Source: Xanthomonas sacchari (GTDB lineage: Bacteria > Pseudomonadota > Gammaproteobacteria > Xanthomonadales > Xanthomonadaceae). Taken from it: 64,000 nt of DNA. The DNA is taken from assembly GCF_040529065.1 (NCBI RefSeq), contig NZ_CP132343.1:62001-126000 (forward strand). Reading direction: 5' to 3'. The position numbers and the translations under genes are program-made. Position 1 is the first letter of the stretch. Each line of letters begins with the position of its first letter. This document shows, in pieces, positions 29,882 to 47,820 of this stretch. The notes beneath the pieces are model-generated. The model worked only from the letters and a program-made list of their open reading frames with translations, did not search any database and had not been told where the DNA came from.

Positions 29882-29888
29882 CTGGCGC

Positions 29889-30723: not shown

Positions 30724-30725
30724 AG

Positions 30726-31148: not shown

Positions 31149-31184
31149 TGCGTCGCTCCACCGAGGGCAGTAGACCCGATTGAG

Positions 31185-32009: not shown

Positions 32010-32023
32010 TGCGGGACTGGCAG

Positions 32024-32419: not shown

Positions 32420-32546
32420 TCTGTAGCGTTCCTAGATCAGTTCGCGATGGAGTAGGCGTCGCCTCGCCCTACCGAACAGAGCGCAAGACAAGGGAACCAA
32501 CGCGCGTCAAAGGTTCAGTTGACCCCTTCAGAGATGTCTCATTGCA

Positions 32547-33008: not shown

Positions 33009-33034
33009 GTGTCATCCCCCTGATTGAACCGATG

Positions 33035-33055
33035 CGCGAAGCGATCGGCTTCGCG
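33035..33055. terminator. hairpin, possible terminator or attC stem
   Basis: Perfect 8-bp stem CGCGAAGC / GCTTCGCG around a GATCG loop, in the gap between two leftward genes. There is no T tract on either side. It could be the core of a decayed attC, but no GTTAGRY-like ends were found at the right distance. Confidence 0.35.
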
Positions 33056-33092
33056 ACTCGGGACCGATGTAAGGCGAGCTAGTCGCCGCGCT

Positions 33093-33443: not shown

Positions 33444-33451
33444 CGCGCCGC

Positions 33452-33769
33452 TCACCACTTCCCAAAGTAGGACGAGATGTCGAAGTAGACCTCGCGCTCC
33501 TCGCCGGAGGGCAGCACGATCGTGATGAGGTCCATGGCCGACGGCTCGAACAACAGCGACTGCGATTTGATGCGCGCGCCGGGGTAGTGCTGATCGAGCC
33601 ATGTGCGTTGCGCGGCGATGCCCGCGCCTTCGCTATGCGCCGAAGACAGATCGACGGGACGGTCCGGCGATGCGCCATCCCCATGTGCGACGGCCGGCCG
33701 CGGCGACGGCGCGGAGTGACATGCCACAAGGCCCGCCAGCAGGATCAACGACAGCAGTCCACACTTCAT
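33452..33769 (-). CDS. small lipoprotein
   Basis: 105 residues. Lipobox LAGLVAC puts the lipidated Cys at residue 17. A flexible Pro/Ala/Ser linker follows, then a small domain (RTWLDQHYPGARIKSQSLLFEPSAMDLITIVLPSGEEREVYFDISSYFGKW) that ends in aromatic residues. Small lipoproteins of this kind occur as immunity partners of secreted effectors in Xanthomonadaceae, but no effector is nearby and no family is named. Confidence 0.6.
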   Translation of the reverse strand: MKCGLLSLILLAGLVACHSAPSPRPAVAHGDGASPDRPVDLSSAHSEGAGIAAQRTWLDQHYPGARIKSQSLLFEPSAMDLITIVLPSGEEREVYFDISSYFGKW

Positions 33770-33923
33770 ATCACACCCCCTAATGTGGTCGACCAGACAG
33801 CTGGATCAGAGTAGACCTGTCGGCGCACTGCGCACAATAGCGCGCGGTCTGGCTAGGACTTCGCTTGATGCATCACTCGATCAACTGCGCACCTGGTCCC
33901 GCAACCTTCTCCGCCGGACGCCG

Positions 33924-34619
33924 CTAATAGCACTGCCACGCAAGCGCCCACTCGTCTTCTTTTCCGGGCGCTGTTCCGCGGCCGAAGTAGCCGACACCGC
34001 TGTCGCCCCACATCCAGCGGCCCTTGTCCGTGGAGTCGATCTGGAAGACGAATTCCGGCGACGCGGGATGGCGCTTGAACGGCGCCCAGAAGATCTCGGC
34101 CTGGATCAGCGTCGGCCATCCTCCAAGCTTGAAGCCATCCAGGTTCCGGAAGAGATCGTGGTAGTGCGCTTCGATATCTGCGGGCAGATCCATCGGCGCA
34201 TCCTCCCAGCACGGGTAGTCGTCATGAAAGACATGCGGCCGCATCGGAAATGCGCTGATCGGCGAATCGGTGTGCCGTGGCGTCAGCGGGATCAGTCCAT
34301 CGAGCCGCTTGTACGCCCGCAGACACCACCCTTGTCCGTTGGGCGTATCGACCGGGAGCGTATCGGGACCGATGAACACCGCAATGAATGCGATATCCGC
34401 GAGGCGGGCCGGACGCAGAGGCAATTCGCTGACGTTGATCTGACACAGCGCATGCATCGGCCGTCCCGCCGTCTCCGGCCATGCCTCGCCAGGCGCACAG
34501 ACGTTCACACGACCGAACCAACTCGCCAGGGGATCGTCGGGCGGCCGGAATCCCCCAATCTCCAGGATGACACCCGAGCGGGCGAGTTGGGCTTTGAGGT
34601 CGTCAGCTGTCGTTGTCAC
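33924..34619 (-). CDS. DUF1963 (YwqG-like) protein
   Basis: 231 residues from a GTG at 34619. The layout fits DUF1963/YwqG: IGGFRPPDDPLASWFGRVNV at ~20-40, MHALCQINVSELPLRPARLADIAFIAVFIG, GWCLRAYKRLDGLIPL, then KLGGWPTLIQAEIFW and the C-terminal WMWGDSGVGYFGRGTAPGKEDEWALAWQCY. Members occur widely in polymorphic-toxin immunity loci; biochemical function is unknown. No signal peptide. It is one of several such single genes in this leftward series. Confidence 0.8.
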   Translation of the reverse strand: MTTTADDLKAQLARSGVILEIGGFRPPDDPLASWFGRVNVCAPGEAWPETAGRPMHALCQINVSELPLRPARLADIAFIAVFIGPDTLPVDTPNGQGWCLRAYKRLDGLIPLTPRHTDSPISAFPMRPHVFHDDYPCWEDAPMDLPADIEAHYHDLFRNLDGFKLGGWPTLIQAEIFWAPFKRHPASPEFVFQIDSTDKGRWMWGDSGVGYFGRGTAPGKEDEWALAWQCY

Positions 34620-34699
34620 GTGTGCGTCTTCCGCGCTTCATCCAGGCGGGGCCGTGTTTAATGGCTTTGCGTTCAATAGAACAGGGATCAGTGTGCATT

Positions 34700-34760
34700 T
34701 CCAAGACAAGTGCGCCGATCCTGTTTCCTTGGTACGTCAGGGTTGAGCGCATTGTCAGGC
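34700..34760 (-). repeat. possible degenerate attC
   Basis: On the plus strand, TTGAGCGCATTGTCAGGC ends this stretch, matching the L''/R'' ends of the clear attC sites at 35209 and 38209 (TTGAA...GTCAG). The other end (TTCCAAGAC) is only a weak R' match, so this is a low-confidence call. Confidence 0.3.
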
Positions 34761-34788
34761 CACACCGTAGGCATGCTTCCCATGCACT

Positions 34789-35205
34789 TCAATCATCGGA
34801 CGCGTCATAGATATCCAGGCTGAGCGAGATGCCACAGCACGAAAGTGCTCCGAGCACCTCTGGGCAGAACTCCATTCCATCGTTGGAGGAGCCCATGAAC
34901 ACGCCGCAGAAAAAGTCCATTGTGAAGCGTGACCGAAGCGAGGCCCAAACGGCCGGATCTTCTGTCAGCTTGCTCAGTATCTTGGAGATTTGGGCCGGAA
35001 TGTCTTCGGGGTAGCTGTCTTCAGCCGCCAAGCTCCATCGTCCGATCTTCTCTACGTAGCGGTTGCCGGTCTTGGCCCCTACACGGATATCACCCTTGGC
35101 AAATGCCCTGGTTGGCTCACAGCCCAGCAGGTCCGTGATCTCTGATGGCACGAGGTCATCTCCAAAGATTCGGAAGGAGACGATCGAGTGGTCTGCAATT
35201 CTCAT
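34789..35205 (-). CDS. DUF4279 protein in an integron cassette
   Basis: 138 residues. The pattern VSFRIFGDDLVPSEITDLLGCEPTRAFAKGDIR followed by GRWSLAAEDS is characteristic of DUF4279, a small family common in bacterial immunity and accessory loci. The second half (FTMDFFCGVFMGSSNDGMEFCPEVLGALSCCGISLSLDIY) completes the alpha/beta fold. The ATG lies 3 bp from the R' core of the attC at 35209-35270, the usual position in a cassette. Function unknown. Confidence 0.8.
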   Translation of the reverse strand: MRIADHSIVSFRIFGDDLVPSEITDLLGCEPTRAFAKGDIRVGAKTGNRYVEKIGRWSLAAEDSYPEDIPAQISKILSKLTEDPAVWASLRSRFTMDFFCGVFMGSSNDGMEFCPEVLGALSCCGISLSLDIYDASDD

Positions 35206-35208
35206 GGC

Positions 35209-35270
35209 GCGCCAACATACGAGTTAAGCCGCGCCGCGATCTGGAGGCGGTTTGAATCAACTGTCAGGGC
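35209..35270 (-). repeat. attC site
   Basis: Minus-strand order: R''-like GCCCTGAC, L'' TTCAAACCGCC, a GCGG-rich loop, L' GCGGCTTAACTC, and R'-like GTTGGCGC. The two halves fold into an imperfect hairpin. The stop codon of the DUF2185 gene lies inside R'' and the DUF4279 gene begins 3 bp beyond R'. This is the classic 59-60-bp element layout. Confidence 0.85.
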
Positions 35271-35617
35271 TCATCCTCCGGCGTCCAGTTTGTCACCGCG
35301 ATGAACTGCTCCGATTCCGGGGGCTTTTCAAATGCGCTGCCTTCCGGGGCGTCCAGAAACGGAATAATGCTCGGATCGTAGTTGGCGATCGTGTTGACGT
35401 CATACACGGCATGGTTGGCTGGGTTGTCCATGTACGCATCGTCTTCGGAGCCTGACATGAAGCGCCAACCGCTATCGATGTCGTTGTCCGGCGCCTCGCG
35501 GTACATGAAGCGCACGGAATCACCGTCGACGGTGATCCTGTCGGTGGCAATACAGCCGCCGTAGCCTTCGGCCACTGGCTTGATCTGATCTTGCGAGAGT
35601 CGGAACTGCTTGGTCAT
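35264..35617 (-). CDS. DUF2185 (Imm33-like) protein in an integron cassette
   Basis: 117 residues. Strong match by eye to DUF2185/Imm33: GYGGCIATDRITVDGDSVRFMYREAPDNDIDSGWRFMSGSEDDAYMDNPANHAVYDVNTIANYDPSIIPFLDAPEGSAFEK. Members are predicted immunity proteins of polymorphic toxins. The gene fills one cassette exactly: it starts 2 bp after the attC at 35620-35679 and its TGA lies in the R'' core of the attC at 35209-35270. No promoter of its own is visible, so its expression may depend on read-through. No cognate toxin in the window. Confidence 0.85.
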   Translation of the reverse strand: MTKQFRLSQDQIKPVAEGYGGCIATDRITVDGDSVRFMYREAPDNDIDSGWRFMSGSEDDAYMDNPANHAVYDVNTIANYDPSIIPFLDAPEGSAFEKPPESEQFIAVTNWTPEDEP

Positions 35618-35619
35618 GC

Positions 35620-35679
35620 GTCCTGACACCTGGATTGGGCGACACCGCGAAGCTGGGCCGGTTGAATGAATAGTTAGAC
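35620..35679 (-). repeat. attC site
   Basis: 60 bp. Minus strand: perfect R'' GTCTAAC, L'' ATTCAACCGG, loop region AGCTTCGCGG, L' GCCCAATCC, and R' GTCAGGAC. It separates the small membrane-protein cassette (35847-36140) from the DUF2185 cassette. The opening GTCTAACTATTCATTCAA is very close to that of the well-known aadA-type attC sites. Confidence 0.88.
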
Positions 35680-35756
35680 GGTGGTGCCAGGAGGTGGTGA
35701 AGCATCGACTGCGCTTCCCCAGCACTACCGCACGGGCGCGAGCATGCCATAGATCT
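35680..35756 (-). repeat. conserved cassette tail, copy 1
   Basis: About 77 bp directly 5' (in gene orientation) of the attC at 35620. It is similar to segments beside the attC sites at 36153 and 36771: shared stretches include GTGAAGCAT and GAGCATGCCA(T/C)AGATC (plus strand). It lies after the stop of the membrane-protein gene and is not part of a recognisable reading frame. Confidence 0.65.
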
Positions 35757-35846
35757 CTGTCTTGGATCTTGCTGGCGTCGCTGGCCGCTGGGTGTCACCA
35801 AGACCGGCCGTCAGGCCCCAAGCCTCCGGGCTTGGTGTGCCCACTG

Positions 35847-36140
35847 CTACACGCCGCCGCCCAGAAACGGCAGCACGATGAAACAGGTAATCAGGAGACT
35901 ACCGACGGCGACGACCGACAGGTAAGGTGCCGAGCGAGCTGAGCGATCCGTGGCCACGGAGTACCACGCTGCCGGAACAGAGATCAGAAGCGCCAGGAAC
36001 GAGCCAACGCCAAGCACGGCGAACGCAACAGGCACCACAGGGACATCGCACAGGAGGAGGGCCGCCACCGTAGAAATGACCAGACTTGCTTCAAGAACCA
36101 GCAGAGCGAGTACGGAAATCTTCGCCGGCTGCATAGACAT
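35847..36140 (-). CDS. three-helix membrane protein in an integron cassette
   Basis: 97 residues from ATG 36140. Helices ISVLALLVLEASLVISTVAALLLC, VPVVPVAFAVLGVGSFLALLISV and YLSVVAVGSLLITCFIVLPFL. The ATG is 12 bp beyond the R' core of the attC at 36153-36208. Unlike the DUF2185 cassette, the gene ends well before its own attC; the 3' space holds the conserved tail at 35680-35756. No family recognised. Confidence 0.65.
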   Translation of the reverse strand: MSMQPAKISVLALLVLEASLVISTVAALLLCDVPVVPVAFAVLGVGSFLALLISVPAAWYSVATDRSARSAPYLSVVAVGSLLITCFIVLPFLGGGV

Positions 36141-36152
36141 GTTCTCGGGGTC

Positions 36153-36208
36153 TGCCAACTGAATTGAACCGCACCGCGCGGCGGCTTCGGGTTGCATCAT
36201 CGTTAGGC
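36153..36208 (-). repeat. attC site
   Basis: 56 bp. Minus strand: perfect R'' GCCTAAC, then CAACCCGAAGCCGCCGCG, the L' side GCGGTTCAATTC, and R' GTTGGCA. CCG/CGG arms pair in the centre. It separates the membrane-protein cassettes at 36408-36752 and 35847-36140. Confidence 0.85.
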
Positions 36209-36288
36209 GTTGGTGCCAAGGAAGGGGTGAAGCATGGACCGCGCTCCCCAGTACTGCCGCCAGGAGTCGAGCATGCCACAGATCGCGA
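36209..36288 (-). repeat. conserved cassette tail, copy 2
   Basis: About 80 bp adjoining the R'' side of the attC at 36153, homologous along most of its length to the tails at 35680 and 36827. The closest shared blocks are GGGGTGAAGCATGGAC and GAGTCGAGCATGCCACAG (plus strand). Confidence 0.65.
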
Positions 36289-36407
36289 TCATGAGGACTT
36301 GTCCAAAGTGGACGCCGCACCGCGCGTCCATCACTAGATTGATGCCTGAAGTAAGCGGACCCACGGATACGCATTCGTCTCGCGTGTATTTGTTCTACCC
36401 AGCATGT

Positions 36408-36752
36408 CTAGATAGACATGGCCACTGCAAGAAATCCTGAACTCATCCATACGAGAAGGCAAAGCCCGACACAAGGCAGCGCGAACGCGCGCCAGCAGGC
36501 GCCGATAGCGGCGACGGCCGCAACAAGCAGAGTGGAGCCCCAGAACATGGGGTACGCCCCGGCTCCCCAGACAAGCCAATACGGTGGACCAATCAGCGAG
36601 GCGCCAAGGAGCGAACCAGAAGGTAGCCAGCCCGGCTGACGCAGTACGACCAGACAAAGCGTGAGGTAGCAAAGCACCAAGGCAAGCAACGACGTGGTTG
36701 CAACGACTGCCCACCGCCGACGAACCAGTGCTTTCGGAGCATGTGGGGCCAT
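36408..36752 (-). CDS. four-helix membrane protein in an integron cassette
   Basis: 114 residues from ATG 36752; longer versions run into the attC and are unlikely. Helices WAVVATTSLLALVLCYLTLCLVVL, LLGASLIGPPYWLVWGAGAYPMF, WGSTLLVAAVAAIGACW and LPCVGLCLLVWMSSGFLAVAMSI. The ATG lies 18 bp from the degenerate attC at 36771. No family recognised. The cassette has a 3' non-coding stretch ending in the conserved tail at 36209-36288. Confidence 0.6.
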   Translation of the reverse strand: MAPHAPKALVRRRWAVVATTSLLALVLCYLTLCLVVLRQPGWLPSGSLLGASLIGPPYWLVWGAGAYPMFWGSTLLVAAVAAIGACWRAFALPCVGLCLLVWMSSGFLAVAMSI

Positions 36753-36770
36753 CAAGAACCCTGCTGTTGA

Positions 36771-36826
36771 GCCTACGGCCTGGGTTGAGCCGCGCGCGGA
36801 GCATGCCGGCTTCGACGAATCCATAC
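36771..36826 (-). repeat. degenerate attC site
   Basis: Aligns with the attC at 36153: plus strand GCCTACGGCC, GTTGAGCCGCGCGCGG, CCGGCTTCGACGAAT. But the R'' core GTTAGGC is replaced by CCATACC, so recombination here is probably lost. The conserved tail continues on its R'' side as at the other two sites. Confidence 0.55.
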
Positions 36827-36899
36827 CAGGAGGCGGTGACGTATGAACTGTGCTGCCGGGCGCTGCCACCGAGAGTCGAGCTTCCCACAGATCGCGGTG
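36827..36899 (-). repeat. conserved cassette tail, copy 3
   Basis: About 73 bp similar to the tails at 35680 and 36209 (AGGAGGCGGTGA; GAGTCGAGC; CCCACAGATCGCGG on the plus strand). It borders the degenerate attC at 36771, showing that tail and attC were copied together. Confidence 0.6.
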
Positions 36900-36988
36900 T
36901 TGGCGCTAGAGCCGACTGAAATCGGAGCAAACTTACAGACGTGTCGCACACAACAAAGTGCACTCTCCCCTTGTCTTCGTGGTCTTTC

Positions 36989-37765
36989 CTATTTGCGCTC
37001 GACCAACCTGATCTGGTCGCCCTGCACAGTCCAGATCGTTCCCGCGGGCGCTGTGGCGACATAGATGGGCTTTCTGGCCCACAGACTCCAGAACACGTGT
37101 GCCTCCGTGGGCACTGGATCGAGCAAGTGGGTGATCATCAGCGCCTCCACCTTGGGGCCCGTCTCTAGAACGATGCATGTGCGCGTGAATGCCCGCTGGG
37201 ATACGACGCGCGCGTCCTTCACCGAGAAGCGGTAGGTGCCGCCGATCGGCACCACGTTGTTTTTTGTCGTTGCTGGCAGAAGGTAAACGACCCAGTCTTC
37301 CTCGGGACTCTTGCCTGGCAATACAACGGAGTTGTACTTCTTCGCGCATCGCTCGAATTGCGCCGTCGTTGCCGCGGCGCGGGCTTGCGCCGCGCCCGCT
37401 TCGTAAGCGGTGAGTGCAACAGGCGCTTCCAGCGCCTTGACAGACCCGGCCTTCCCGTTGGTGACGGCGACCCGATAGATCGCCGCCGGCGTGCTGTCCA
37501 GAAACGTCACGACAATGTCGGCGCCCTGCTGTTCCGTGACCCAGCCTCTAACCCGCTTGTCTCGCCTGAACTCAGGCACTGCCAGCACCGCGTCGGTCGC
37601 CACGGACGCGGCTTGATCATGCAGGTAGATCGCGCTTCCGACGGTTTGTGCGGACGCAATTTTGGCTGCCTCGTCGGCTGGCGAAAGCGCAGCTGGAAGT
37701 GGTTCGTCTGCATGCACCGACGTGCATGCCAAAGCGAGAATCGCGGTCAGTATCAGTCGAATCAC
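36989..37765 (-). CDS. exported hypothetical protein in an integron cassette
   Basis: 258 residues from a GTG at 37765. Signal peptide LILTAILALACTSVHADE. The mature domain has no motif I know; it contains VRGWVTEQQGADIVVTFLDSTPAAIYRVAV, EEDWVVYLLPATTKNNVVPIGGTYRF and VFWSLWARKPIYVATAPAGTIW. It is large for a cassette gene. The stretch 5' of it is a degenerate attC (37771-37842). Just past its stop is an isolated AAAGTGCACTC (36954), the sequence that also brackets the RloC-like gene. Confidence 0.65.
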   Translation of the reverse strand: MIRLILTAILALACTSVHADEPLPAALSPADEAAKIASAQTVGSAIYLHDQAASVATDAVLAVPEFRRDKRVRGWVTEQQGADIVVTFLDSTPAAIYRVAVTNGKAGSVKALEAPVALTAYEAGAAQARAAATTAQFERCAKKYNSVVLPGKSPEEDWVVYLLPATTKNNVVPIGGTYRFSVKDARVVSQRAFTRTCIVLETGPKVEALMITHLLDPVPTEAHVFWSLWARKPIYVATAPAGTIWTVQGDQIRLVERK

Positions 37766-37770
37766 TTGAA

Positions 37771-37842
37771 GTCCCGATTATGAGCCCAGAGCCTGCATGA
37801 TGCCGCGCCGCAAGGTGGCGGCAGCTCGGATGGATCCTAGGC
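37771..37842 (-). repeat. degenerate attC site
   Basis: Contains a strong central hairpin (TGCCGCGCC-GCAA-GGTGGCGGCA, plus strand) and an R''-like CCTAGGC, in which the TAG stop of the next gene lies. The R' side (GTCCCGAT) departs from consensus. It keeps the position and size of an attC between two single-gene cassettes. Confidence 0.5.
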
Positions 37843-38205
37843 CGTATTCGCGATCTTGGGTAGATAAAAGTACGCCGTCAGCAGCGCAGTCGCAAAGAAC
37901 ATTGCCAAGCACAAATTGAGTGCCGCGATGACGGCCGAGGCAAAGAGCTTGTTCTCGAGCGAGTGGCGCGACCGCCACAGATAGAGACCAATTGCCGCAG
38001 TAACGGCTGCACTGAGCCAAAGCGCAGCTGGGGAATAGGGCAACCAAGCAGAAAACGAACGAGCAACCCCCGGCACACGCGGCCCATAAGACTCGAGCTG
38101 GCTCGCGGGGAAAGCAGCGAGAATCTGCGACAGCTGTGCCGCCGTGACAAGCGATCCGAAGAGGCCGCAGAGGTAGATCCAGACGCCGACGACAATCTTT
38201 AGCAT
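37837..38205 (-). CDS. four-helix membrane protein in an integron cassette
   Basis: 122 residues from ATG 38205, 3 bp after the GTTGGAC core of the attC at 38209. Helices IVVGVWIYLCGLFGSLVTAAQL, LPYSPAALWLSAAVTAAIGLYLW and LFASAVIAALNLCLAMFFATALLTAYFYL. No family recognised. Its stop falls in the R''-like core of the degenerate attC at 37771-37842. Confidence 0.65.
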   Translation of the reverse strand: MLKIVVGVWIYLCGLFGSLVTAAQLSQILAAFPASQLESYGPRVPGVARSFSAWLPYSPAALWLSAAVTAAIGLYLWRSRHSLENKLFASAVIAALNLCLAMFFATALLTAYFYLPKIANTA

Positions 38206-38208
38206 GGG

Positions 38209-38268
38209 GTCCAACACGAGCGTTAAGCAGCGGAGCCGAGCGAGATGGACTCGAGTGAATTGTCAGAA
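38209..38268 (-). repeat. attC site
   Basis: 60 bp. Minus strand: R'' TTCTGAC, L'' CAATTCACTCGAG, an imperfect central hairpin, L' CTGCTTAACGCTC, and a perfect R' GTTGGAC. The upstream gene's TGA is inside R'' and the downstream gene starts 3 bp after R'. Confidence 0.82.
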
Positions 38269-38580
38269 CCCTGCCCGCGACAGCGCGTAAGTCAATTCCA
38301 ACTGGTTGCAGCCATGGTCGTGCAAGATGCCATCCGCATCCAACACGCCAACCTCAAATCCGTCCTCGACGTCTTCGTAGTAGAGCAGGCCGGACGGCAG
38401 CTCCGCAACAACAAGCGCCTGCTCCAAGCCGAAGCTGCGCTGGAAAGGCACTGAGTAGAACGGCACACGGTAGCGGGCGAACGCAGCCTGCTGCGCAGGC
38501 GAGCAGCCAGGAAGCTGGTCGGCCACCAGCGCCTCAAGCTCATCGACCGTAATGGGCTGCCAGGCTTCCATAGGACTCAC
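38263..38580 (-). CDS. hypothetical protein in an integron cassette
   Basis: 105 residues from a GTG at 38580, or 102 from ATG 38571. Sequence: AWQPITVDELEALVADQLPGCSPAQQAAFARYRVPFYSVPFQRSFGLEQALVVAELPSGLLYYEDVEDGFEVGVLDADGIL. Soluble, acidic, immunity-like in size, family not recognised. It ends in the attC at 38209. On its 5' side is only half of an attC, cut by the RloC-like insertion, so its original promoter-side neighbour has been displaced. Confidence 0.65.
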   Translation of the reverse strand: MSPMEAWQPITVDELEALVADQLPGCSPAQQAAFARYRVPFYSVPFQRSFGLEQALVVAELPSGLLYYEDVEDGFEVGVLDADGILHDHGCNQLELTYALSRAGF

Positions 38581-38612
38581 TCGTTTGAACTAAGCCGCGT
38601 CGCGAGGCGAGA
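38576..38612 (-). repeat. truncated attC remnant
   Basis: The L'/R' half is recognisable (minus strand CGCGACGCGGCTTAG, then GTGAGTCC). It aligns with the same half of the attC at 35209 and 42365, but the L''/R'' half is missing. The sequence passes directly into the AAAAGTGCACTC repeat that borders the RloC-like gene. Confidence 0.6.
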
Positions 38613-38615
38613 TAG

Positions 38616-38641
38616 AAAAGTGCACTCTGACCCCTGTTTTC
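38616..38641. repeat. left direct repeat flanking the RloC-like gene
   Basis: 26 bp beginning AAAAGTGCACTCTGACCCC and ending TGTTTTC. The same sequence, with two mismatches, is found in the same orientation at 40889-40914 on the other side of the gene. Confidence 0.8.
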
Positions 38642-38654
38642 ATTTTTTCCGTGA

Positions 38655-40817
38655 TTAAACCATCATCGCGTCGTAGTGTTCGACAAACCCAGTTCTAACA
38701 AAAACATCTTTGAACTTGTCTAGGAACTTTGTTCCGTCCATCACCCCCATGTCCGTCAAATTGATTGCATCTGAGTGAGAGCCTCGATTTATGTATCGGT
38801 AGAAAGGTTTAAATGTCTCGTCCTCATTCTCAAGCTTTGTTAGTTCTTTGTGAAGCGCGTCAGATTTGTGAACAAAGGAATAATAATATTCAAGAATGTT
38901 CCTCATGATGTTAGGAAGAATGACTGGCAAGACCTTCCCGTCACGGGCATCTTTTAAGATAGACCAGTAAGACTGATAGTCATTTTTGATGTCGTCAAAA
39001 CTCATCGCTGTTACCTTTGATGAGCTATCTTTGACAACCCTGAAAAATTCATAATTCTTATTGGGCTGTGGCTTGAAATGCCTGTAAAGCTCGTGAAAGA
39101 AGAACATGCTGTGAGTCAAGATGATGATCTGCCGGAACTCATTTGGTTCAATCAATCGCTGGCATATCAATGACGAAACCTCATAAAGATAGTTATGCGA
39201 AAGGCTCGATATGGGGTCATCAAGAACGAGAATCCGTCGGGTTTTATCCACCGATGTCGTCTGATCATGGGCCCCGTTACAAAGCGCCAAAAAGTACAGG
39301 AGTGCGATTAGCGTCTTCTCACCTTCACTCAGCGACTTGTAACGCGAAGCTTTGCCATTTCCACGCTTCAGTTCATAGTAGCCAGTCTTCGCCGTTGACT
39401 GAACAAGTTTAAAGTCATTAATGCCAATGCTCTTCAAGGAGCGATTGATGGCAGCAACCGAAAGGTCGATGTTGGTAATCTTTCCTTGATTCTCTTCTAT
39501 ACTAGTCTCTAGGTCTGCCACTGCCTTAGCAATGTTAGACAACTCCTTGTCCAGATCCCCTATCTTGCCATCACTAGCCTTAGTCTTTGCATCATAATCG
39601 TTTATGGCATCGTCATAGTTGGCTCGCATTGCCAACCAAAATTGTTCCTTGATCTGGCCCAGCGCCGCAGGCTTATTTATGATCAATTTATTGTATTGGT
39701 CTATTTTTATTTGAATCTCATCTATGCATCGATTCACCTCGACAACAAAATCTTCCGTCTTATTCAACTCCACGACCTCACCAGGGTTATTCCTTTTTTT
39801 TTCGATGAAAGTCTGATTGCTATCAAGGGTCTTGTCCAACGCAGCCTTGGCTTTGATGAAGTTTGCATCGCTCTGAACGTACTCATCAGAAAACTCAGCG
39901 CCCGACAGAATTTTCTTGTAATTGTCCACTAAGCCCGTGTAGGAGGTTTCGAATTCCTCCAGTTTTTGAATACTTTCTTGATACGTCTTGTCGAATAAAT
40001 TTTTCAAGCTCTCTTCGAATTCAGATTTCAATTCCTGCTGACAGAAAGGACATACATTTTCACTGAAAGGCAGGAATGTTTGGCCCTGCCTAACCCAGTC
40101 AGAGTTTCCTAGCTTTTCAATCAATGCCGATAGATAACTATCGCTTGTTCCAACAATTCGCTGTGCCAACAAATGTTCGTTGAAAGCGATGAAGTTTGAA
40201 ACTTTTGGAAGCGAAGCTTTCTTGAGCCCAGTCGCACCATTGATCTCGGCGGCCCTTGATGCCAAAACAACGAGGTCGACCGACTGATTGGCTTTAGGTG
40301 AGGCAATAAGCTTGTTCCACAACTTGTCCTTTGCCCCCTTCAGTCCTTCTAGACAGAAATCAAGGTCACCATCTTCATATGTCTCTTTGATTGACCAAAC
40401 CGCATTTTTTACGGCCGTATGATCGCTGTTCTTTTGACTGACGTGATTTTGCCTCATCGTCGTCAAAGTGAGTTTTCGTGTGACATGCTCGTCGATTAAC
40501 TTACGAGCTTTATCTATCGCTTCACTAGCCTCCTTGTTTTCTTCACCCAAGGTAAAAATTCCAGGGAATGCGTTGTCACCATAGAAAGTTTGATCGATGT
40601 AATCCGTGTTGTAGACAAGGATTTGATATGGTCCCGCGCCATCATCCAAAAGCGAGCACTTGCTGAATTCACCTTCCTGTTTTTTTAGTGCTCTTGCAAT
40701 CGTTGACTTGCCAGAACCGTTGTGGCCATAGAACAAAACAACACGCTTACTGAGAGGGATCAGTAAGTCTGAGTCGGGAAACGTTGCAACATCACGCATT
40801 TTGATGGACTTAAGCAT
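38655..40817 (-). CDS. rloC-like: RloC/PrrC-type anticodon nuclease candidate (AAA_13 ATPase with zinc hook)
   Basis: 720 residues from ATG 40817 (AAGGGAA 7 nt upstream). ABC/SMC-type ATPase: Walker A GHNGSGKST (31-39), ABC signature LSEGEKT (496-502), Walker B RILVLDDPISSLS (528-540), switch ILTHS (566-570). Between Walker A and the signature are long coiled coils with a CPFC zinc hook (256-259), as in RloC. C-terminal to the ATPase, R639-x3-E643 followed by H681 match the Arg-Glu-His triad of the PrrC/RloC tRNA anticodon nucleases. RloC cleaves tRNA and excises the wobble base when its ATPase is triggered by DNA damage or phage. The gene is much richer in A+T than its surroundings and is bracketed by direct repeats, so it was acquired. 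No restriction-modification genes are nearby. Confidence 0.78.
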   Translation of the reverse strand: MLKSIKMRDVATFPDSDLLIPLSKRVVLFYGHNGSGKSTIARALKKQEGEFSKCSLLDDGAGPYQILVYNTDYIDQTFYGDNAFPGIFTLGEENKEASEAIDKARKLIDEHVTRKLTLTTMRQNHVSQKNSDHTAVKNAVWSIKETYEDGDLDFCLEGLKGAKDKLWNKLIASPKANQSVDLVVLASRAAEINGATGLKKASLPKVSNFIAFNEHLLAQRIVGTSDSYLSALIEKLGNSDWVRQGQTFLPFSENVCPFCQQELKSEFEESLKNLFDKTYQESIQKLEEFETSYTGLVDNYKKILSGAEFSDEYVQSDANFIKAKAALDKTLDSNQTFIEKKRNNPGEVVELNKTEDFVVEVNRCIDEIQIKIDQYNKLIINKPAALGQIKEQFWLAMRANYDDAINDYDAKTKASDGKIGDLDKELSNIAKAVADLETSIEENQGKITNIDLSVAAINRSLKSIGINDFKLVQSTAKTGYYELKRGNGKASRYKSLSEGEKTLIALLYFLALCNGAHDQTTSVDKTRRILVLDDPISSLSHNYLYEVSSLICQRLIEPNEFRQIIILTHSMFFFHELYRHFKPQPNKNYEFFRVVKDSSSKVTAMSFDDIKNDYQSYWSILKDARDGKVLPVILPNIMRNILEYYYSFVHKSDALHKELTKLENEDETFKPFYRYINRGSHSDAINLTDMGVMDGTKFLDKFKDVFVRTGFVEHYDAMMV

Positions 40818-40865
40818 TTTGAAATTCCCTTTATGCACTCCAGAACTTGGGTCGGAGCAGAACTG

Positions 40866-40914
40866 GGGTCGGAGTGTACTTTTTTAAGAAAAGTGCACTC
40901 CGACCCATGTTTTC
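40866..40914. repeat. right flank of the RloC-like insertion: inverted repeat plus direct repeat
   Basis: Bases 40866-40906 form an inverted repeat (GGGTCGGAGTGTACTTTT / AAAAGTGCACTCCGACCC with a TTAAG spacer). Bases 40889-40914 are the partner of the direct repeat at 38616-38641. Further related motifs (GGACTCTGACCCC) and three tandem copies of ACTTTCTCC follow to 40979. Confidence 0.8.
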
Positions 40915-41029
40915 CCGACCCCACTTTCTTGGATAAAATTGGACTCTGACCCCACTTTCTCCACTTTCTCCACTTTCTCGATATGACACGTTACTCGCCA
41001 CGATCAACAAATAAGTCAACCTGACTCCG

Positions 41030-42343
41030 TTATCCCTCCTCCTCGACCTTTGGCAACTGGCCGTAAAACTCTCCGGTGCGCTGCTCGTCTACGAGAAGCT
41101 CCAGGAATCGTCTCGACACATCAGCGCCGAGCCCTTTGTCGAGGGCAATTTGGCCGAGCACGCGCAGACGGTTGAGCTGCCCCCGACTCGTGATTCGACG
41201 ACGCAAGACCGCATCCGCTCGAATGACATCCACAAACGCGTCGACTGCCGTCGAGTCAAATGACTCAAACATCTCTTTGACGATTGGTGCTGCCGCATTT
41301 GAGTAAAACGTTGTTCGTGACCATTGCGCGCTGCTACCCTGATAGCCGACATAGGTTTTTGTGATTGCAGCTACGTAGTCAGGAAGCAGATCAACGGGTA
41401 TAAACGACGAATAGTTCTTAAGCTCTGCGGCGACGCGCCCTTCCTCACTCCAGTCGTCGAGCGCGGCCGCTAAAGACTTGATGATTGGCTCGACGAGTAT
41501 TCTTCGGGTGGCGGTGGAGACATACATCAGGCCGCCCACTAGCTGCATGAAGTCCTGGCCGCGAGCAATTCGCGCCGAGTTACCGGATATAACGGTTTTT
41601 TCGAAGCGCTTACCTATAGTTGTCTTGTCTTCACGAGTGAGCGCTTTCCAGAGAATTGGCGCACTAAACTCGATGTTTCCACGAAGATCGCTCGATATGT
41701 TCTCGCCCTCGTAAGACGAATAGAGGCGATTAATTAGTTCGCTCTTATAGACCTGCGGAAGGTCGCTGAACGCTTGGTCAACAGCCAGCTCGTTTCTCGC
41801 GAAGTTTGCAGAGTCCATCTGAGCGATGTACTCGGAAATGTCGATGATGGACGGCGGGAATTCTTCAGACAGAACGTACTTATTGCAGTCCGATATGAGA
41901 CTTAGCACTTTCAGCAGGCCCGGTTCGGTGCTCTGCGGGTGGCCGTCGAAGAGGTTTCGGGTCTCCCGTGCTTGCTGAAGCATCTTTCTTGCTTCCCAGC
42001 TCAGAACGCCAATCTTGTATGCGCCCTCGATCAGATCATGATCAGTCACGTGATCTTGAAAGTCCTCATAGCGCTCGATGTTCTTACGGAACTTCATTTC
42101 CTTATTGAAGAGATCTAGGCTTCTATGTATGACTTTTCGACGCAGGTCATCAACGACGGCATTCCAATATGAGCCAATCGCGCTTCGGTAGCCCTTTACC
42201 GGTAGTACGCGTTTGGCCTCCGCTAAGTAAGTGCAGTCGCGGACATCTTCGCGAACATGGCCGAGCTCCCTGCCGATGTGCGATACGACTTCAGCGTCGA
42301 TTACGGCGATAGGGCTTCCCGTTACAAGCTCTCGTCGCGACAT
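41030..42343 (-). CDS. hypothetical protein, large cassette gene
   Basis: 437 residues. The ATG follows the attC at 42365 by ~21 bp, as in a cassette. No signal peptide or membrane helix. It is helical and charged: HIGRELGHVREDVRDCTYLAEAKRVLPVKGYRSAIGSYWNAVVDDLRRKVIHRSLDLF recalls DUF4145/Swt1-HEPN-like regions. NARDETRNLF-type motifs are not clear-cut; ARETRNLFDGHP at ~145 is the closest to a HEPN Rx4-6H pattern. Base composition is less GC-rich than the core genome. It lies just upstream of the RloC-like insertion and downstream of an MtlR-family gene, so an accessory or defence role is possible but unproven. Confidence 0.65.
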   Translation of the reverse strand: MSRRELVTGSPIAVIDAEVVSHIGRELGHVREDVRDCTYLAEAKRVLPVKGYRSAIGSYWNAVVDDLRRKVIHRSLDLFNKEMKFRKNIERYEDFQDHVTDHDLIEGAYKIGVLSWEARKMLQQARETRNLFDGHPQSTEPGLLKVLSLISDCNKYVLSEEFPPSIIDISEYIAQMDSANFARNELAVDQAFSDLPQVYKSELINRLYSSYEGENISSDLRGNIEFSAPILWKALTREDKTTIGKRFEKTVISGNSARIARGQDFMQLVGGLMYVSTATRRILVEPIIKSLAAALDDWSEEGRVAAELKNYSSFIPVDLLPDYVAAITKTYVGYQGSSAQWSRTTFYSNAAAPIVKEMFESFDSTAVDAFVDVIRADAVLRRRITSRGQLNRLRVLGQIALDKGLGADVSRRFLELLVDEQRTGEFYGQLPKVEEEG

Positions 42344-42364: not shown

Positions 42365-42423
42365 GCTAACATATGAGTTAATCCGCGCCGCGAGGCGGCA
42401 TCGGCTTGAACGAATAATTAGGC
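42365..42423 (-). repeat. attC site (59 bp)
   Basis: The clearest site. Minus strand: R'' GCCTAAT, L'' CGTTCAAGCCGA, stem-loop TGCCGCCTCGCGGCGCGG, L' ATTAACTCA, R' GTTAGC. The TAA of the MtlR-family gene lies in R'' and the next gene begins about 20 bp past R'. Size and boxes are those of a textbook 59-base element. Confidence 0.9.
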
Positions 42424-42984
42424 GTCTCCCTCGTAAGCTTCAGATGCTTCTTCGAGCGCCTGTTTCACCATGGCTACCAGCTCGCTCTGGCGCCCCTTGG
42501 CAGCCGCGAGATCGGGCTCCGCGCGCGAAGTTATTCGGCTCCGCTTGTTCATGGCTGTGTGCAGCAACGCCAAAATTGCGACAGCTGAAGAGATGAAGTG
42601 CTTACGTGGAGGATCGCCGGCATTACGGAATGTAAGTGACAACTCCCGACAGCGGTTCGAGATGGACTGATCTTCGAATGTGAGAGGGCGATGTACGTGA
42701 CCGAAATCATTTCGGATCTTTCGGATTAAGTGCAGATCGTGGCGCGCATTTGCGCTGATAAGCCCTAGGAGATATGAGGCGTCGATTCGAGACGAAAACG
42801 TTCCCAAAGGTCTAGCCTGCCCAAAAACCTCGTCAGCCACACTCCTGTCGTCTACAACATATGACCGAAGTAGGTCGCCGAGCTCGGAGTCTAGAAATGA
42901 TGCGGCCATTAGCGCGCACCCGCGATCGGTCTCGGGACTTAGCGATGAGCGAAATTCCATCACGTCGTTAAAGCGGTCGATCAC
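42418..42984 (-). CDS. MtlR-family protein in an integron cassette
   Basis: 188 residues from a GTG at 42984 with AAGGAGAG upstream. It matches the MtlR (mannitol operon repressor) fold family: TDRGCALMAASFLDSELGDLLRSYV, then GTFSSRIDASYLLGLISANARHDLHLIRKIRNDFGHVHRPLTF. The IRNDFGH segment is the family's most conserved. There is no DNA-binding domain, and no mannitol genes are near; free-standing members are common in accessory DNA with unknown roles. It is the first recognisable cassette of the array in transcription order. Confidence 0.8.
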   Translation of the reverse strand: MIDRFNDVMEFRSSLSPETDRGCALMAASFLDSELGDLLRSYVVDDRSVADEVFGQARPLGTFSSRIDASYLLGLISANARHDLHLIRKIRNDFGHVHRPLTFEDQSISNRCRELSLTFRNAGDPPRKHFISSAVAILALLHTAMNKRSRITSRAEPDLAAAKGRQSELVAMVKQALEEASEAYEGDA

Positions 42985-43724: not shown

Positions 43725-46700
43725 TCAGGGCAACTCCATAGCGTTATTGCGCTGCGTCACCTCGTCCACCTCGCTCTCGGTGACTACCCGCAACCGGCCA
43801 CCGTTGGTACTTGCGCCTGCCGGCACCGCCAGCCGAACGTTCGCGATCCTCGGCTCCAAATCCCGCGGCGCCTCCAACGCAGGAAACCCCGCCCGCGCCA
43901 ATTCCCGACCACGCGCGTCTTCCAGCACCACAAACCCCGCCGGCGCATCCACATGCCCCAGGCTATGCACGGTGACTTCGATGGCATCGCCCGTCACCCG
44001 CACATCCCCCCGCCCGATCCCCAAGTCCGGCCGTAGCTCGACCGGCACCGCAGCCGGCGCGACCAGCTCGAACTCCATCACCACCGTCTTGCCGGCCGGG
44101 AATTCCACGTCCACCGCGCCGCTCTTCTCGAACGCGAACTCGCGCGTGGCCGCCTTGCCGTCGATCTTCCCATCGCCATCGCGATCCACGCCCGCGCGCA
44201 TCCGCCACTGTCCGGCGGCGACATTCCACCCGGTCATCTGCGCCCGCTGCGTCTTGCCGCTGGTGTTGTAGCCGATGACGGTGAAGCGATCCTGCCGGGG
44301 CTTGGGCAGCAGCAGCGCCACCTGCACCGCGCCTTCGGGGTCGGCGAAGCGCCAGCTGACGGTGTGGCCGGGGTAGGTCTGGTTGCGCTTGAGGGCGACG
44401 CCGCCGAGGCGGGCGCGCTGCAGGTTCACGGTGGGCGATTCGACGCGGTCGCTCCACCAGTGGCCTTCGGTGTTCATGTAGAAGGTCTGCAGCTTGTCGC
44501 GGGTCTCGGCGCGGTACAGGGTTTCCAGCCAGCGCGGGTCGCCGCTCTGTTCCCAGGCGACGTGGTGGGCGAAGTCCGGGGCGTCTTCGGCCTCGGCGTC
44601 GGCCGCCGCCTTGGCCAGGCTGGCGCCCCAGCTGTCGCGCTTGCCGAGCACGTCGAGGAAGTTCTCGTTGAGCAGGGACAGGCCGCCGGGGCCGGCCTTG
44701 GCGACGCGGTAGTCGATGGGCTGGAGGTAGCGCGCATCGCCGGTCCAGCGGTACGCGGCCCAGAAGGTATGCAGGGTGTCGGGGCCGCCGCTGCCGTCGA
44801 ATAGGCTGCCGCCGCGTGTCTTGCCGGTGGCCCAGTTGATCTCGTTGGGCAGCGTCCATTGGCCCTTGGCGTCGGTGTAGGCATGGGCCAGGTAGCCGTC
44901 GGCCAGGCCGGTGACGATGCGGCGGCTGTTGGGATCGGCGTTGTAGCCGCCCAGCAGCAGCGCCGGGTGCAGGATCGGGAACGAGTAGGGTTTTTGCCAC
45001 TGCCAGTTCGGCTCGCGGTAGACCTTGCGCCCGCCGAACCAGTTGCTGGCGAACAGCAGGTGGCCCTGCGGGTTGACCTGGATGATGTTGTCGAACGCCT
45101 TCACCGTGCGCATCAGCCGCTCCACCGTCAGCGGGTCGCCCCAGTTGAGGTAGAGCATTTCGCTGTTGATGTTGATGCCGTCCTCGTAGGAATGCAGTTC
45201 GTCGGTCTCGATGGTGGAGAGGCCGTCGGTGAACATGCCGTTGCGGTAGTTGGCGTCGGACAGGGCGGTGAGCGAGGCATTGAGTTTGTCCGGGTCCACG
45301 CCCATCAGGGCGACGCCGGGCCATTGCTGGGTAAGGTCGGAATCGTCGGAGATGCCGCCGCCGAAATCGCCGTAGTCGACCTGTCGCTCGTCGATCCACC
45401 AGTTGATGTAGCGGCGCGTGGCCTTGAGGTCTTCCAGCTGCCAGAACGCCCAGCCCGGCACGCCCTTGGGCGGCTGCGGCAATTGCACCGGCAGCGGGCC
45501 CTGGTTGCCGTAGCTGATGTCGGCCCAGTACTGGCGGCCCAGCGCGTTGTCCGGGTCCACCCGCAGCAGGTCGTGGATGTCGGCATCCAGGCGCGCGTAC
45601 AGGCGCTGGCGCTTGGAGGTGGTGTGTTCCTCGACCAGGAAGCCCCAGTTGTCCTTGACCTGGTTGAAGCGGTCGGCGATGTGCTCGACCTTGGCCTGCT
45701 CGCGCGGCTTGAACAGCAGGCGGATCTGCGCGCCGTCCAGCGCGCGCGCGTCGAAGCCGGGGGCGGCCGAGGCGATGCTGAGCATCAGGCTGTCGTCGGT
45801 CAGGATGCGGTCGCGCAGATCCAGCCACAGCGTGCGCGCCTGCCCGGGCGCGACCGAGACCGACACGTCGAGCATGTCGCGGCCGGGCCAGATCGGATCC
45901 TTGACGCGGATGTTGAGCGGAATCAGGCCGTTGTGCGTGGCCGGCAGCCGCAGCGCCGGCAGGTCGATGGCAATGCCGTCCAGGCCGTCGTGCATGTTCT
46001 CCCAGCCGTAGGACCAGCTGCGCATCAGCGACTGCGCGGCCGGTGCGTCGCCGAGGTTGGAGGGGATGAGCACATGCACGATGGGCAGCGGCGGCACCGC
46101 GGTCTTGTCGTCGGCACGCTTGCGCGAGGGCGCCTTGGTCGGCAGCGCGACCACGGTGCTGCGTTCGTCCGGCGGGTAGCGCCCGGCGATGTAGGCGCGC
46201 AGCGCGGCGAGGTTGGCGTAGTCCGGGGCGATGTCGCTGCGCACGGTGTAGCGCAGCGTGGCGCTCGGGTTGGCCGGCTCGGCGCCGGCGCCGACGTCGT
46301 AGGCCCAGATTTCCTGGATCGGGGTTTCCTGGGCGACGTTGCTGAAACGCAGGTGGCCGCCGCGGCGGCGTTCGAACTGGTCGACGCTGCGCACGGTGCC
46401 CTGGGCGCGCGCGAACAGCGGCGCAGGCGTGGCGCCAACGGCGGCATAGGTGGCCTGGCCGTAGGCGGCGCCACGCAGTTCGATGCGGTTGAACGGTTCG
46501 TCGGGCAGGGCCAGGTCCAGCGCCTTGCCGCCTTCGACGTAGACGTTCCAGTCGGGCAACTGGAAGTAGTCGTTGCGGCCGGGCAGGCGCGAGCGGTTGT
46601 ACACGCCGGGCCAGGTGGTCTCGGCGATGCCGTCGGTCGCCTTCCACATCCATTCCTTGAGGTCCTTGGCGTCGGCGAACTCGACCTTGCGGATGCGCGT

Positions 46701-47564
46701 GGACGGGGCATCCAGCGCAGGCGGAGCGCGGCCGTGGTCCCAGCCGAAGCGGTGCAACCAGGCGTTGCGCGCGGCGCTCTCCGGCACGGCCTCGGCGCTG
46801 CGCGGCTCCTGCTGCCTGGCCAATGCGGCGACGCCGGCGGCATCGAGCATGCGGTCGTAGACGCGGATCTCGTCGACGTCGCTGCCGCGCAGGAAGTTGT
46901 AGCGGCTCTGCACTTGGTGCGGCGCCAGCACGCGCGCGGCCAGGCCGAGCTGGTCGAGCGCGGCGTCGAAGTCGAGCGAGCCGCCATCGGCGCAGGCCTG
47001 GGTGCAGTCCACGCGCGCGGCTTCCTTGCCGTCCACGTACAGGCGCACGCCGCGGGTCTCATCCCAGGCGAAGGCCAAGTGGGTCCAGGCGCTGGGTGCG
47101 GGGACCTTGCCGAGCTTGAAGGAGACGCGGGTGCGCGCCAGGTTGGCGTCGGTGACGAAGGCATCGAAGCCGTGGCCGTTCCAGTCGATGCGCAGCCAGG
47201 CCATGTCCCAGCTGGTGTGGTCGGCGTAGCCGACGCGGAAGATCACGAACGGGGCTTCGCCCACCGGGTAGCGCGAGCGCCAGAAGAACGACAACGTGCC
47301 GCGCTGGGTGTAGAGGTTGCCGGGGGCGTTCCAGGACAGCACGCCGTCGTCGGCCCATTCGATGGCTTGGCCGGAGACGCCGGTGGGCACCAGGGCGATC
47401 TTGTCGCGGAAGTTGGGTGTCGGGTCACCTTGGGCGACATCGGCGTCCAGGCCGTGGTCGGCGGAGACGCGGAACAGGAGTTCGGGAGTAGCGGCTGTGG
47501 CGATGGTGGGACAGACGAGTCCGCACAGCAGGGCGAGACTGTGGAGCATGCTGCGCAGGCGCAT
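43725..47564 (-). CDS. large exported LamG-domain protein, probable polysaccharide-active
   Basis: 1279 residues from ATG 47564; the frame continues upstream only through a REP palindrome. Signal peptide MLHSLALLCGLVCPTIATAA. Residues ~25-250 form a LamG/concanavalin-like lectin domain (GTLSFFWRSRYP; WTHLAFAWDETRGVRLYVDGKEAARVDC; VDEIRVYDRMLDAAGVAAL). The central part has carbohydrate-binding-like modules, then a long helical region resembling an alpha/alpha barrel (GWAFWQLEDLKATRRYINWWIDERQVDYGDFGGGISDDSD; LHSYEDGININSEMLYLNWGDP; HTFWAAYRWTGDARYLQPIDY). The end is beta-rich (GAVDVEFPAGKTVVMEFEL). It precedes no gene on its strand but lies 256 bp downstream of a carbohydrate TonB receptor. 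I cannot name a GH or PL family. Confidence 0.75.
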   Translation of the reverse strand: MRLRSMLHSLALLCGLVCPTIATAATPELLFRVSADHGLDADVAQGDPTPNFRDKIALVPTGVSGQAIEWADDGVLSWNAPGNLYTQRGTLSFFWRSRYPVGEAPFVIFRVGYADHTSWDMAWLRIDWNGHGFDAFVTDANLARTRVSFKLGKVPAPSAWTHLAFAWDETRGVRLYVDGKEAARVDCTQACADGGSLDFDAALDQLGLAARVLAPHQVQSRYNFLRGSDVDEIRVYDRMLDAAGVAALARQQEPRSAEAVPESAARNAWLHRFGWDHGRAPPALDAPSTRIRKVEFADAKDLKEWMWKATDGIAETTWPGVYNRSRLPGRNDYFQLPDWNVYVEGGKALDLALPDEPFNRIELRGAAYGQATYAAVGATPAPLFARAQGTVRSVDQFERRRGGHLRFSNVAQETPIQEIWAYDVGAGAEPANPSATLRYTVRSDIAPDYANLAALRAYIAGRYPPDERSTVVALPTKAPSRKRADDKTAVPPLPIVHVLIPSNLGDAPAAQSLMRSWSYGWENMHDGLDGIAIDLPALRLPATHNGLIPLNIRVKDPIWPGRDMLDVSVSVAPGQARTLWLDLRDRILTDDSLMLSIASAAPGFDARALDGAQIRLLFKPREQAKVEHIADRFNQVKDNWGFLVEEHTTSKRQRLYARLDADIHDLLRVDPDNALGRQYWADISYGNQGPLPVQLPQPPKGVPGWAFWQLEDLKATRRYINWWIDERQVDYGDFGGGISDDSDLTQQWPGVALMGVDPDKLNASLTALSDANYRNGMFTDGLSTIETDELHSYEDGININSEMLYLNWGDPLTVERLMRTVKAFDNIIQVNPQGHLLFASNWFGGRKVYREPNWQWQKPYSFPILHPALLLGGYNADPNSRRIVTGLADGYLAHAYTDAKGQWTLPNEINWATGKTRGGSLFDGSGGPDTLHTFWAAYRWTGDARYLQPIDYRVAKAGPGGLSLLNENFLDVLGKRDSWGASLAKAAADAEAEDAPDFAHHVAWEQSGDPRWLETLYRAETRDKLQTFYMNTEGHWWSDRVESPTVNLQRARLGGVALKRNQTYPGHTVSWRFADPEGAVQVALLLPKPRQDRFTVIGYNTSGKTQRAQMTGWNVAAGQWRMRAGVDRDGDGKIDGKAATREFAFEKSGAVDVEFPAGKTVVMEFELVAPAAVPVELRPDLGIGRGDVRVTGDAIEVTVHSLGHVDAPAGFVVLEDARGRELARAGFPALEAPRDLEPRIANVRLAVPAGASTNGGRLRVVTESEVDEVTQRNNAMELP

Positions 47565-47592
47565 GGGCAGTGCCGTGGAAGACCGAGGCCGG

Positions 47593-47663
47593 CTGTCGCG
47601 GCTGAAGCCGCTCCTACGAGGAGCAGGTGCGCGCGTAGGAGCGGCATCAGCCGCGACGATGTG
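47593..47663. repeat. REP-like palindrome
   Basis: Arms CGCGGCTGAAGCCGCTCCTAC and GTAGGAGCGGCATCAGCCGC in back-to-back order around GAGGAGCAGGTGCGCGC. It sits just upstream of the LamG gene start and is read in frame with it, which creates a false N-terminal extension. Confidence 0.8.
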
Positions 47664-47820
47664 GTCGGCGACGGCGCCACTGCGAATTGCCTGTTTCATC
47701 TCGCTCCTTTGCGATCGGCGCGCACCATTCCGGTACGCGTCGATCTCCCTCCCCGACCCGCGAGTATGCGGGCAGCGGGGCGTTGCCGATGCCGCAGCGC
47801 GGCACCGGCGCACGCAGACA

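What the first reader, a model, noticed from the sequence alone, without database searches (positions are those of the whole stretch)
38616..40914. RloC-type anticodon nuclease candidate bracketed by 26-bp direct repeats inside the cassette array
The gene has an SMC-like ATPase with CPFC zinc hook and, C-terminally, R639-x3-E643 and H681, the Arg-Glu-His arrangement of PrrC/RloC nucleases. It is far richer in A+T than its surroundings, lies between 26-bp direct repeats with two mismatches (38616-38641 and 40889-40914), and abuts half an attC. This suggests capture of a tRNA-cleaving defence gene by a repeat-mediated event that broke a cassette boundary.
Basis: partly seen in the sequence, partly recalled or inferred. 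Interest (0 to 1): 0.85.

Follow-up and report, generated by a model that had tools for sequence, protein, structure and literature searches.

The report
RloC-type tRNase gene among transposase-linked repeats
A bacterial gene that looks like a known kind of anti-virus suicide enzyme (it probably cuts transfer RNA) sits in a variable gene-cassette region, and the repeats around it belong to a family of short repeats linked to a small transposase rather than being a unique capture device.

Summary
The gene (720 aa from the ATG at 40817) is a full-length RloC-type ABC-ATPase/HEPN protein: AAA_13 E 1.2e-123, PADLOC candidate PDC-S06 E 4e-242. Both CPFC hook cysteines are 78/78 conserved; R639/E643/H681 are 78/75/77 of 78 and align in register with the PrrC triad by profile comparison. 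The 26-bp direct repeats and a half attC are real.

The repeat is not peculiar to this gene: it forms the inverted ends of six Y1 (IS200-like) transposase genes or remnants, and 70 of 397 genomes of the order carry it, with the reversed-pattern control 0 in every row shown. In the window's genus 20 of 38 copies lie within 12 kb of the same lamG-side locus, so this is a hot spot. The right border also holds an apparent 3' end of such a transposase gene. None of 80 relatives of the gene carries the repeat in the flanks fetched. No empty site turned up among 174 direct pairs, so repeat-mediated capture remains inference. Activity and tRNA target are untested.

The parts
38655..40817 (-). rloC-type gene, 720 aa from the ATG at 40817 (ORF open to a GTG at 40838): SMC-like ATPase, CPFC hook, C-terminal HEPN-type nuclease region
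38616..38641 (+). left direct repeat: a single end of the Y1-transposase-linked repeat, its outer side towards rloC
40889..40914 (+). right direct repeat (2 mismatches to the left copy), right arm of an inverted doublet
40861..40883 (-). inverted copy of the repeat; with 40889-40911 forms a doublet, arms 23 nt, 87% complementary, 5 nt between
   Evidence: (I2)
40933..40960 (+). third, degenerate direct copy of the repeat (75% over 28 nt)
   Evidence: D7
40993..41035 (+). apparent remnant: last codons of a Y1 transposase gene plus its terminal repeat (88-92% to stretches in four genus genomes)
38586..38609 (.). surviving left half of an attC site; right half not recognisable
42365..42423 (.). 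intact attC, used as the yardstick
43725..47813 (-). LamG-domain gene that bounds the cassette array; part of it (43730-46700) is found in 17 of 20 genus genomes

Best explanation
The gene encodes an RloC-type anticodon nuclease: a Rad50/SMC-like ATPase with a zinc hook that holds a C-terminal HEPN-type RNase silent and, on a DNA-damage or phage signal, releases it to cut tRNA anticodon loops and stop translation (tRNA cutting is reported in print for RloCs of Geobacillus kaustophilus and Acinetobacter baylyi; here it is inferred from conserved residues). It lies in an integrase-less attC cassette array beside a lamG gene, a variable locus that also collects terminal repeats of a Y1 (IS200-like, RAYT-like) transposase family. 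The direct repeats around the gene are members of that family: a solo end on the left, and on the right an inverted doublet followed by an apparent remnant of a transposase gene's 3' end. A history that fits is that a Y1 element and its derivatives settled at the attC, half of which was lost, and that rloC arrived flanked by the same repeats; homologous recombination between a resident repeat and one on incoming DNA would give the observed (+) rloC (-)(+) order. Anatomy is shown; activity and history are inferred.
For: Gene family; a Streptococcus phage relative (26.5% identity) is annotated 'translation-disabling ACNase RloC'. Features; published definition R-X3-E-X36-52-H with Ser often before His, here X37 and GSH. 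PrrC register. Repeat as Y1 transposase ends. Spread with zero control in the rows shown. Hot spot. Apparent transposase remnant. AAGTGCACTCYGACCC (<=1 mismatch) only at this gene in the host genome. No integron integrase over the cut-off in the genome. Array beside LamG; arrays without nearby intI beside lamG and/or secF are described for Xanthomonas.
Against: No activity data and no structure model. Identity to relatives is low: 29-42%, 44-46% for one partial order relative. No characterised RloC sequence was at hand for direct comparison. Most Y1 loci taken without regard to the repeat lack it: 1 of 30 (L074) shows the same inverted pair, L068 has copies in another arrangement, and the density of weak matches (<=4 substitutions) in the 30 is only about twice that of shuffles. 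So the link rests on six elements in loci chosen for the repeat. Of the three in L043, only one ORF matches Y1_Tnp in Pfam; the ORFs overlapping the other two gave no Pfam match, so these are remnants or lie in another frame. The window has no Y1 gene by tblastn, only a short tail. No empty site.
Confidence: 0.75

Rival explanations
1. The gene is an ABC-HEPN defence protein of the wider AAA_13 group whose RNase cuts something other than anticodon loops (mRNA or rRNA); the conserved residues are the generic HEPN site.
For: HEPN families with the R-x4-6-H motif cut varied RNAs (passages of PMC3710099); here R674-x6-H681 is 78/78 and 77/78. The nearest family model is PDC-S06, a candidate family (passages). 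Identity to a characterised RloC was not measured.
Against: The R-x3-E part and the E-to-H spacing fit the published RloC definition, and the triad aligns with PrrC.
Confidence: 0.25
2. The repeats are bystanders: Y1-linked repeats inserted on either side of rloC after the gene was already in the array, as an ordinary cassette, and moved nothing.
For: The locus collects these repeats in 8 of 17 genus genomes, of which three others (G136, G175, G190 and further ones there) have no rloC relative; relatives of the gene elsewhere lack the repeat; an rloC relative is an attC-bounded cassette by its layout in Arsukibacterium L168; no empty site.
Against: AAGTGCACTCYGACCC copies in the genome lie only at this gene's borders; the half attC ends within seven bases of the left repeat; no attC is recognisable between rloC and the next gene.
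Confidence: 0.45
3. The 26-bp repeats are target-site duplications of a transposon that carried rloC.
For: Two direct copies bracket the gene.
Against: The core occurs in 20 of 299 order genomes, own included, often singly or inverted, and forms the ends of Y1 elements; tblastn found no Y1 transposase in the window and the only long ORF between the copies is rloC.
Confidence: 0.03

Closest known systems
RloC anticodon nuclease (Davidov & Kaufmann 2008, PMC2610378; abstract and passages seen)
   Same: Domain order, Walker A, ABC signature, Walker B, switch His, CXXC hook, R-X3-E-X37-H with Ser before His, 720 aa within 658-897
   Different: No direct alignment to a characterised RloC was possible; activity, tRNA target and zinc response unknown
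PrrC anticodon nuclease
   Same: C-terminal R/E/H register by profile comparison (97.6% probability whole, 74.8% for the nuclease part alone)
   Different: In print PrrC has no zinc-hook insert and is tied to a type I R-M locus; here the hook is present and the neighbours are cassettes
PADLOC candidate PDC-S06
   Same: Full-length match, E 4e-242
   Different: None seen; the passages read call it a candidate and do not say which tested system it equals
RAYT/REP elements (Nunvar 2010, PMC2817692; abstract and passages seen)
   Same: Y1 transposase genes between two inverted repeats, doublets, scattered copies
   Different: No GT(A/G)G head; at most 15 copies per genome, against 37-427 in Stenotrophomonas, though that paper's table also lists genomes with few copies
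Xanthomonas CALINs beside lamG and/or secF (PMC12444791; passages seen)
   Same: attC array without nearby intI beside a LamG gene
   Different: RloC is not mentioned in its text (0 occurrences); Y1-linked repeats were not in the passages I saw

Membership tests
RloC | Walker A, ABC signature, Walker B/D-loop, switch His | tested here: met
   N33/G34/G36/K37, S497/G499/E500, D533/D534, H569 all 78/78
RloC | CXXC zinc hook inside the ATPase | tested here: met
   C256 and C259 78/78
RloC | R-X3-E-X36-52-H, Ser often before His | tested here: met
   R639-x3-E643-x37-H681, S680; R 78/78, E 75/78, H 77/78, S 78/78; definition. Across the 78 the E-H gap is 34-39, so 5 relatives fall just below 36
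RloC | Triad matches that of PrrC | tested here: met
   profile alignment puts R/E/H in register; 3-D superposition not possible
RloC | Size 658-897 aa | tested here: met
   720 aa, 727 from the GTG
RloC | Coiled coil flanking the hook | not tested
   no coiled-coil prediction run
RloC | tRNA anticodon cleavage with wobble excision, zinc response, DNA-dependent ATPase | not testable with these tools
   needs bench work
PrrC | No zinc hook, linked to a type I R-M locus | tested here: not met
   hook present; 6 array proteins given to Pfam show no R-M domain
RAYT/REP | Y1 transposase gene between two inverted repeats | tested here: met
   six of nine Y1 hits in 23 loci shown: L043 (3), L112, L115, L121; not for two in L109 and a second in L121
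RAYT/REP | GT(A/G)G head followed by a palindrome | tested here: not met
   the 12 ends printed show no such head at the repeat
RAYT/REP | High copy number (usually >100 per genome) | tested here: inconclusive
   at most 15 in a genome, 3 in the own genome; but the paper's table includes genomes with few copies
Integron cassette | Gene followed by its own intact attC | tested here: not met
   only a left half at 38586-38609; right half not recognisable
Integron with integrase | IntI in the genome | tested here: not met
   best match 73 bits against a cut-off of 265

The most novel reading that the evidence does not exclude
Y1-transposase-linked repeats act as a second, integrase-independent way of gene capture in decayed integrons: recombination between a resident repeat and a repeat on incoming DNA inserts single genes, here an anticodon nuclease, into the lamG-side array, so that the cassette bank keeps growing after the integrase is lost.
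Probability: 0.15. Interest if true: 0.65.

Novelty: new member of a known kind. Interest (0 to 1): 0.4.

Why it matters
The enzyme is of a known kind. I saw no report of an RloC in a cassette array, on thin grounds: one search for RloC with integron listed 6 papers, of which only passages of PMC3710099 were seen (it lists an 'integron cassette HEPN' family), and PMC12444791, which reports 20 defence orthologues in Xanthomonas cassettes, has no RloC in its text. The more useful part is the locus: a hot spot in the genus where attC cassettes and Y1-linked repeats pile up together, which makes gene gain without an integrase testable by comparing strains of one species.

Tried and rejected
Target-site duplication: disfavoured, the repeat is a dispersed family. 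A dedicated defence-gene carrier: not borne out. Thirty proteins near or between repeats were scanned with Pfam, ten of them also with PADLOC. Seventeen of 30 have no Pfam family at E <= 0.01. Defence-like matches are MvaI/BcnI endonuclease (L053; weak PADLOC REase_II), HNH (L109) and a YdaS match below cut-off (L042); others include Y1_Tnp, CHAD, CMD, SDR dehydrogenase, Dabb, Peptidase C26, DUF3667, DUF4177 and TPR.

Empty sites: 174 direct repeat pairs, 22 junction-spanning hits, all to overlapping loci of the same genome. Neighbouring gene 41030-42343 in the genus: no match beyond attC and the transposase tail. Repeats around relatives: none in 80 loci at up to 2 mismatches, none in L003-L009 at up to 4; flanks of some are cut short by contig ends. 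First genome-contig scan found no relative. Rfam: no match in the window at gathering scores. Literature for the repeat string GGGGTCAGAGT: 18 papers listed, none by title about bacterial repeats, none opened. REP-associated tyrosine transposase with integron: one paper listed, not opened; with 'cargo': the same paper.

Limits: attC detection in relatives was by BLAST with three attC queries and misses divergent sites; L239 and L252 show none. Order and class samples were drawn from larger groups. Five of the 80 relatives were short or broken and left out of alignment A2. Shuffles were of single bases.

Full report
Observation. The window is bases 62001-126000 of a 4,957,212-base single-contig genome. 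ORF 38655-40838 on the minus strand is 727 aa from a GTG. The 26-bp direct repeats are real. In addition there is an inverted arm at 40861-40883, a degenerate third direct copy at 40935 and, at 40993-41035, a sequence shared with four genus relatives. The gene is 43.2% GC; 29500-38600 is 60%.

What the protein is. Pfam AAA_13 matches residues 30-713 (GTG numbering) at 1.2e-123. PADLOC's candidate family PDC-S06 matches at 4e-242 and its PrrC model at 1.8e-18 over residues 491-697 (GTG numbering). phmmer against solved structures gave 5 matches, best E 0.43. In the alignment of 78 sequences (75 of those 80, two order relatives and the window), C256 and C259 are 78/78, R639 78/78, E643 75/78 (3 Asp), H681 77/78, S680 78/78 and R674 78/78. 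The published RloC definition is R-X3-E-X36-52-H with Ser often before His, a CXXC hook and 658-897 aa (PMC2610378, abstract and passages). The window protein has X37, GSH, CPFC and 720 aa; across the 78 the E-H gap is 34-39. RloC and PrrC nuclease parts are HEPN domains with an Rx4-6H motif (PMC3710099, passages); R674-x6-H681 would be that motif (my reading).

PrrC comparison. A PrrC model matched 8 of 229 class genomes. Seven of the eight proteins were aligned; R314, E318 and H350 are invariant in the seven. Profile-profile alignment gives 97.6% probability overall, with R639/E643/H681 opposite R/E/H. With the ATPase removed, the nuclease part alone aligns in the same register at 74.8% probability, E 2.6e-05. 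That these three correspond to E. coli R320/E324/H356 is my inference.

Where it lies. The array carries attC sites: the one at 42365-42423 has matches in 15 of 20 genus genomes, own included. No integron integrase reaches the cut-off in the genome. The gene bounding the array has a LamG domain, and a 2,971-base part of it is found in 17 of 20 genus genomes. Xanthomonas arrays without nearby integrase beside lamG and/or secF are described in PMC12444791 (passages); from this, the size and the GC I infer a Xanthomonas-type host, but no tool named it. Relatives of the gene at E <= 1e-20 were found in 7 of 298 other genomes of the order sample and in none of the 7 other genus genomes in it.

What the repeats are. 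The core occurs in 20 of 299 order genomes and a relaxed form in 70 of 397, the reversed pattern being 0 in every row shown. In L043 the repeat stands inverted at both sides of three Y1 stretches, and likewise once each in L112, L115 and L121. Only one of these was confirmed by Pfam (Y1_Tnp 2.4e-14). The ORFs overlapping the other two in L043 gave no Pfam match, so those are remnants or lie in another frame; the rest rest on tblastn. Two Y1 hits in L109 and a second in L121 lack the pair. Of the 12 ends, 7 continue from the core with C[TG]GTTT, and the window's left copy is identical to one L043 end over the core, one base before it and six after. These loci were chosen for the repeat. Of 30 Y1 loci taken without regard to it, only L074 shows the same pair, and weak matches are only about twice as dense as in shuffles, so this is one subfamily. 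It resembles RAYT/REP units, whose genes are always flanked by two inverted repeats (PMC2817692, abstract and passages), but lacks their head sequence. At 40993-41035 the window holds what looks like the last codons of such a transposase plus its end: matching stretches in L207-L210 continue upstream, and tblastn finds Y1 sequence there in L207, L208 and L209, not in L210. Two of the four (G249 about 2 kb, G136 about 3.6 kb from lamG) lie at the same locus.

A hot spot. In the genus, an exact 15-base core occurs 38 times in 13 of 20 genomes, with 0 in the control. Twenty of the 38 lie within 12 kb of the lamG match on the array side, in 8 of the 17 genomes that have the locus (my count, own genome included). 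In the other 9 the core is elsewhere (G303, G305, G300, G296, G185) or absent (G249, G136, G302, G301). Synteny was checked for seven fetched loci, L041, L239-L243 and L252. In G190 one copy lies 14 bases from an intact attC. My attC search found none in two of these loci, so the hot spot is the locus, not proven to be attC itself.

Against the capture model. None of 80 relatives has the repeat in the fetched flanks at up to 2 mismatches. 174 direct pairs gave no empty site in another genome. Four of the 80 relatives lie between other direct repeats of 24 bases or more (a fifth, L190, had 20 bases but its frame is broken). Of these, L168 (Arsukibacterium sp. MJ3) is bounded by attC-like repeats and is a cassette by its layout. 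So an rloC relative can travel as a cassette, which favours ordinary arrival followed by repeat invasion about as much as repeat-borne arrival.

For the capture model. AAGTGCACTCYGACCC copies (<=1 mismatch) in the 4.96-Mb genome are only at this gene's borders; the shorter ACTCYGACCCC has one copy elsewhere. The half attC ends within seven bases of the left repeat, and no attC is recognisable between rloC and 41030, with the caveat that the right-half probe is weak. Order and orientation, (+) rloC (-)(+), are what recombination of a resident (+) copy with a circle carrying rloC and a doublet would leave. This is inference.

Verdict. An ordinary, probably working RloC-type gene in an unusual, repeat-rich cassette locus. 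Novelty lies in the locus, not in the enzyme.

Noticed in passing
L168:1082-4077: An rloC relative in Arsukibacterium sp. MJ3 sits between attC-like repeats (77 nt, 96% identical) as a cassette.
   Followed up: partly
window 42421-42984 (-): Neighbouring cassette with weak MtlR/DUF4145 matches (E 7.5e-05 and 0.0015, both below cut-off), possibly another HEPN-type protein.
   Followed up: no
L107 (G358:C23:210000-222000), L042, L108, L112: Single genes separated by copies of the Y1-linked repeat, many on the same strand, 0.1-2.5 kb apart; many of the proteins scanned have no Pfam family.
   Followed up: partly
L207:2638-3339 (G249): A Y1 transposase-like stretch about 2 kb from lamG in a genus relative at the same locus.
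   Followed up: partly
L161, L167, L178: rloC relatives lie between exact direct repeats of 30, 24 and at least 40 bases of other kinds.
   Followed up: no
window 35716-35764, 36245-36293, 36854-36902: Three related 49-nt repeats (63-76% identity) inside the array, possibly parts of related cassettes or of a second attC type.
   Followed up: no
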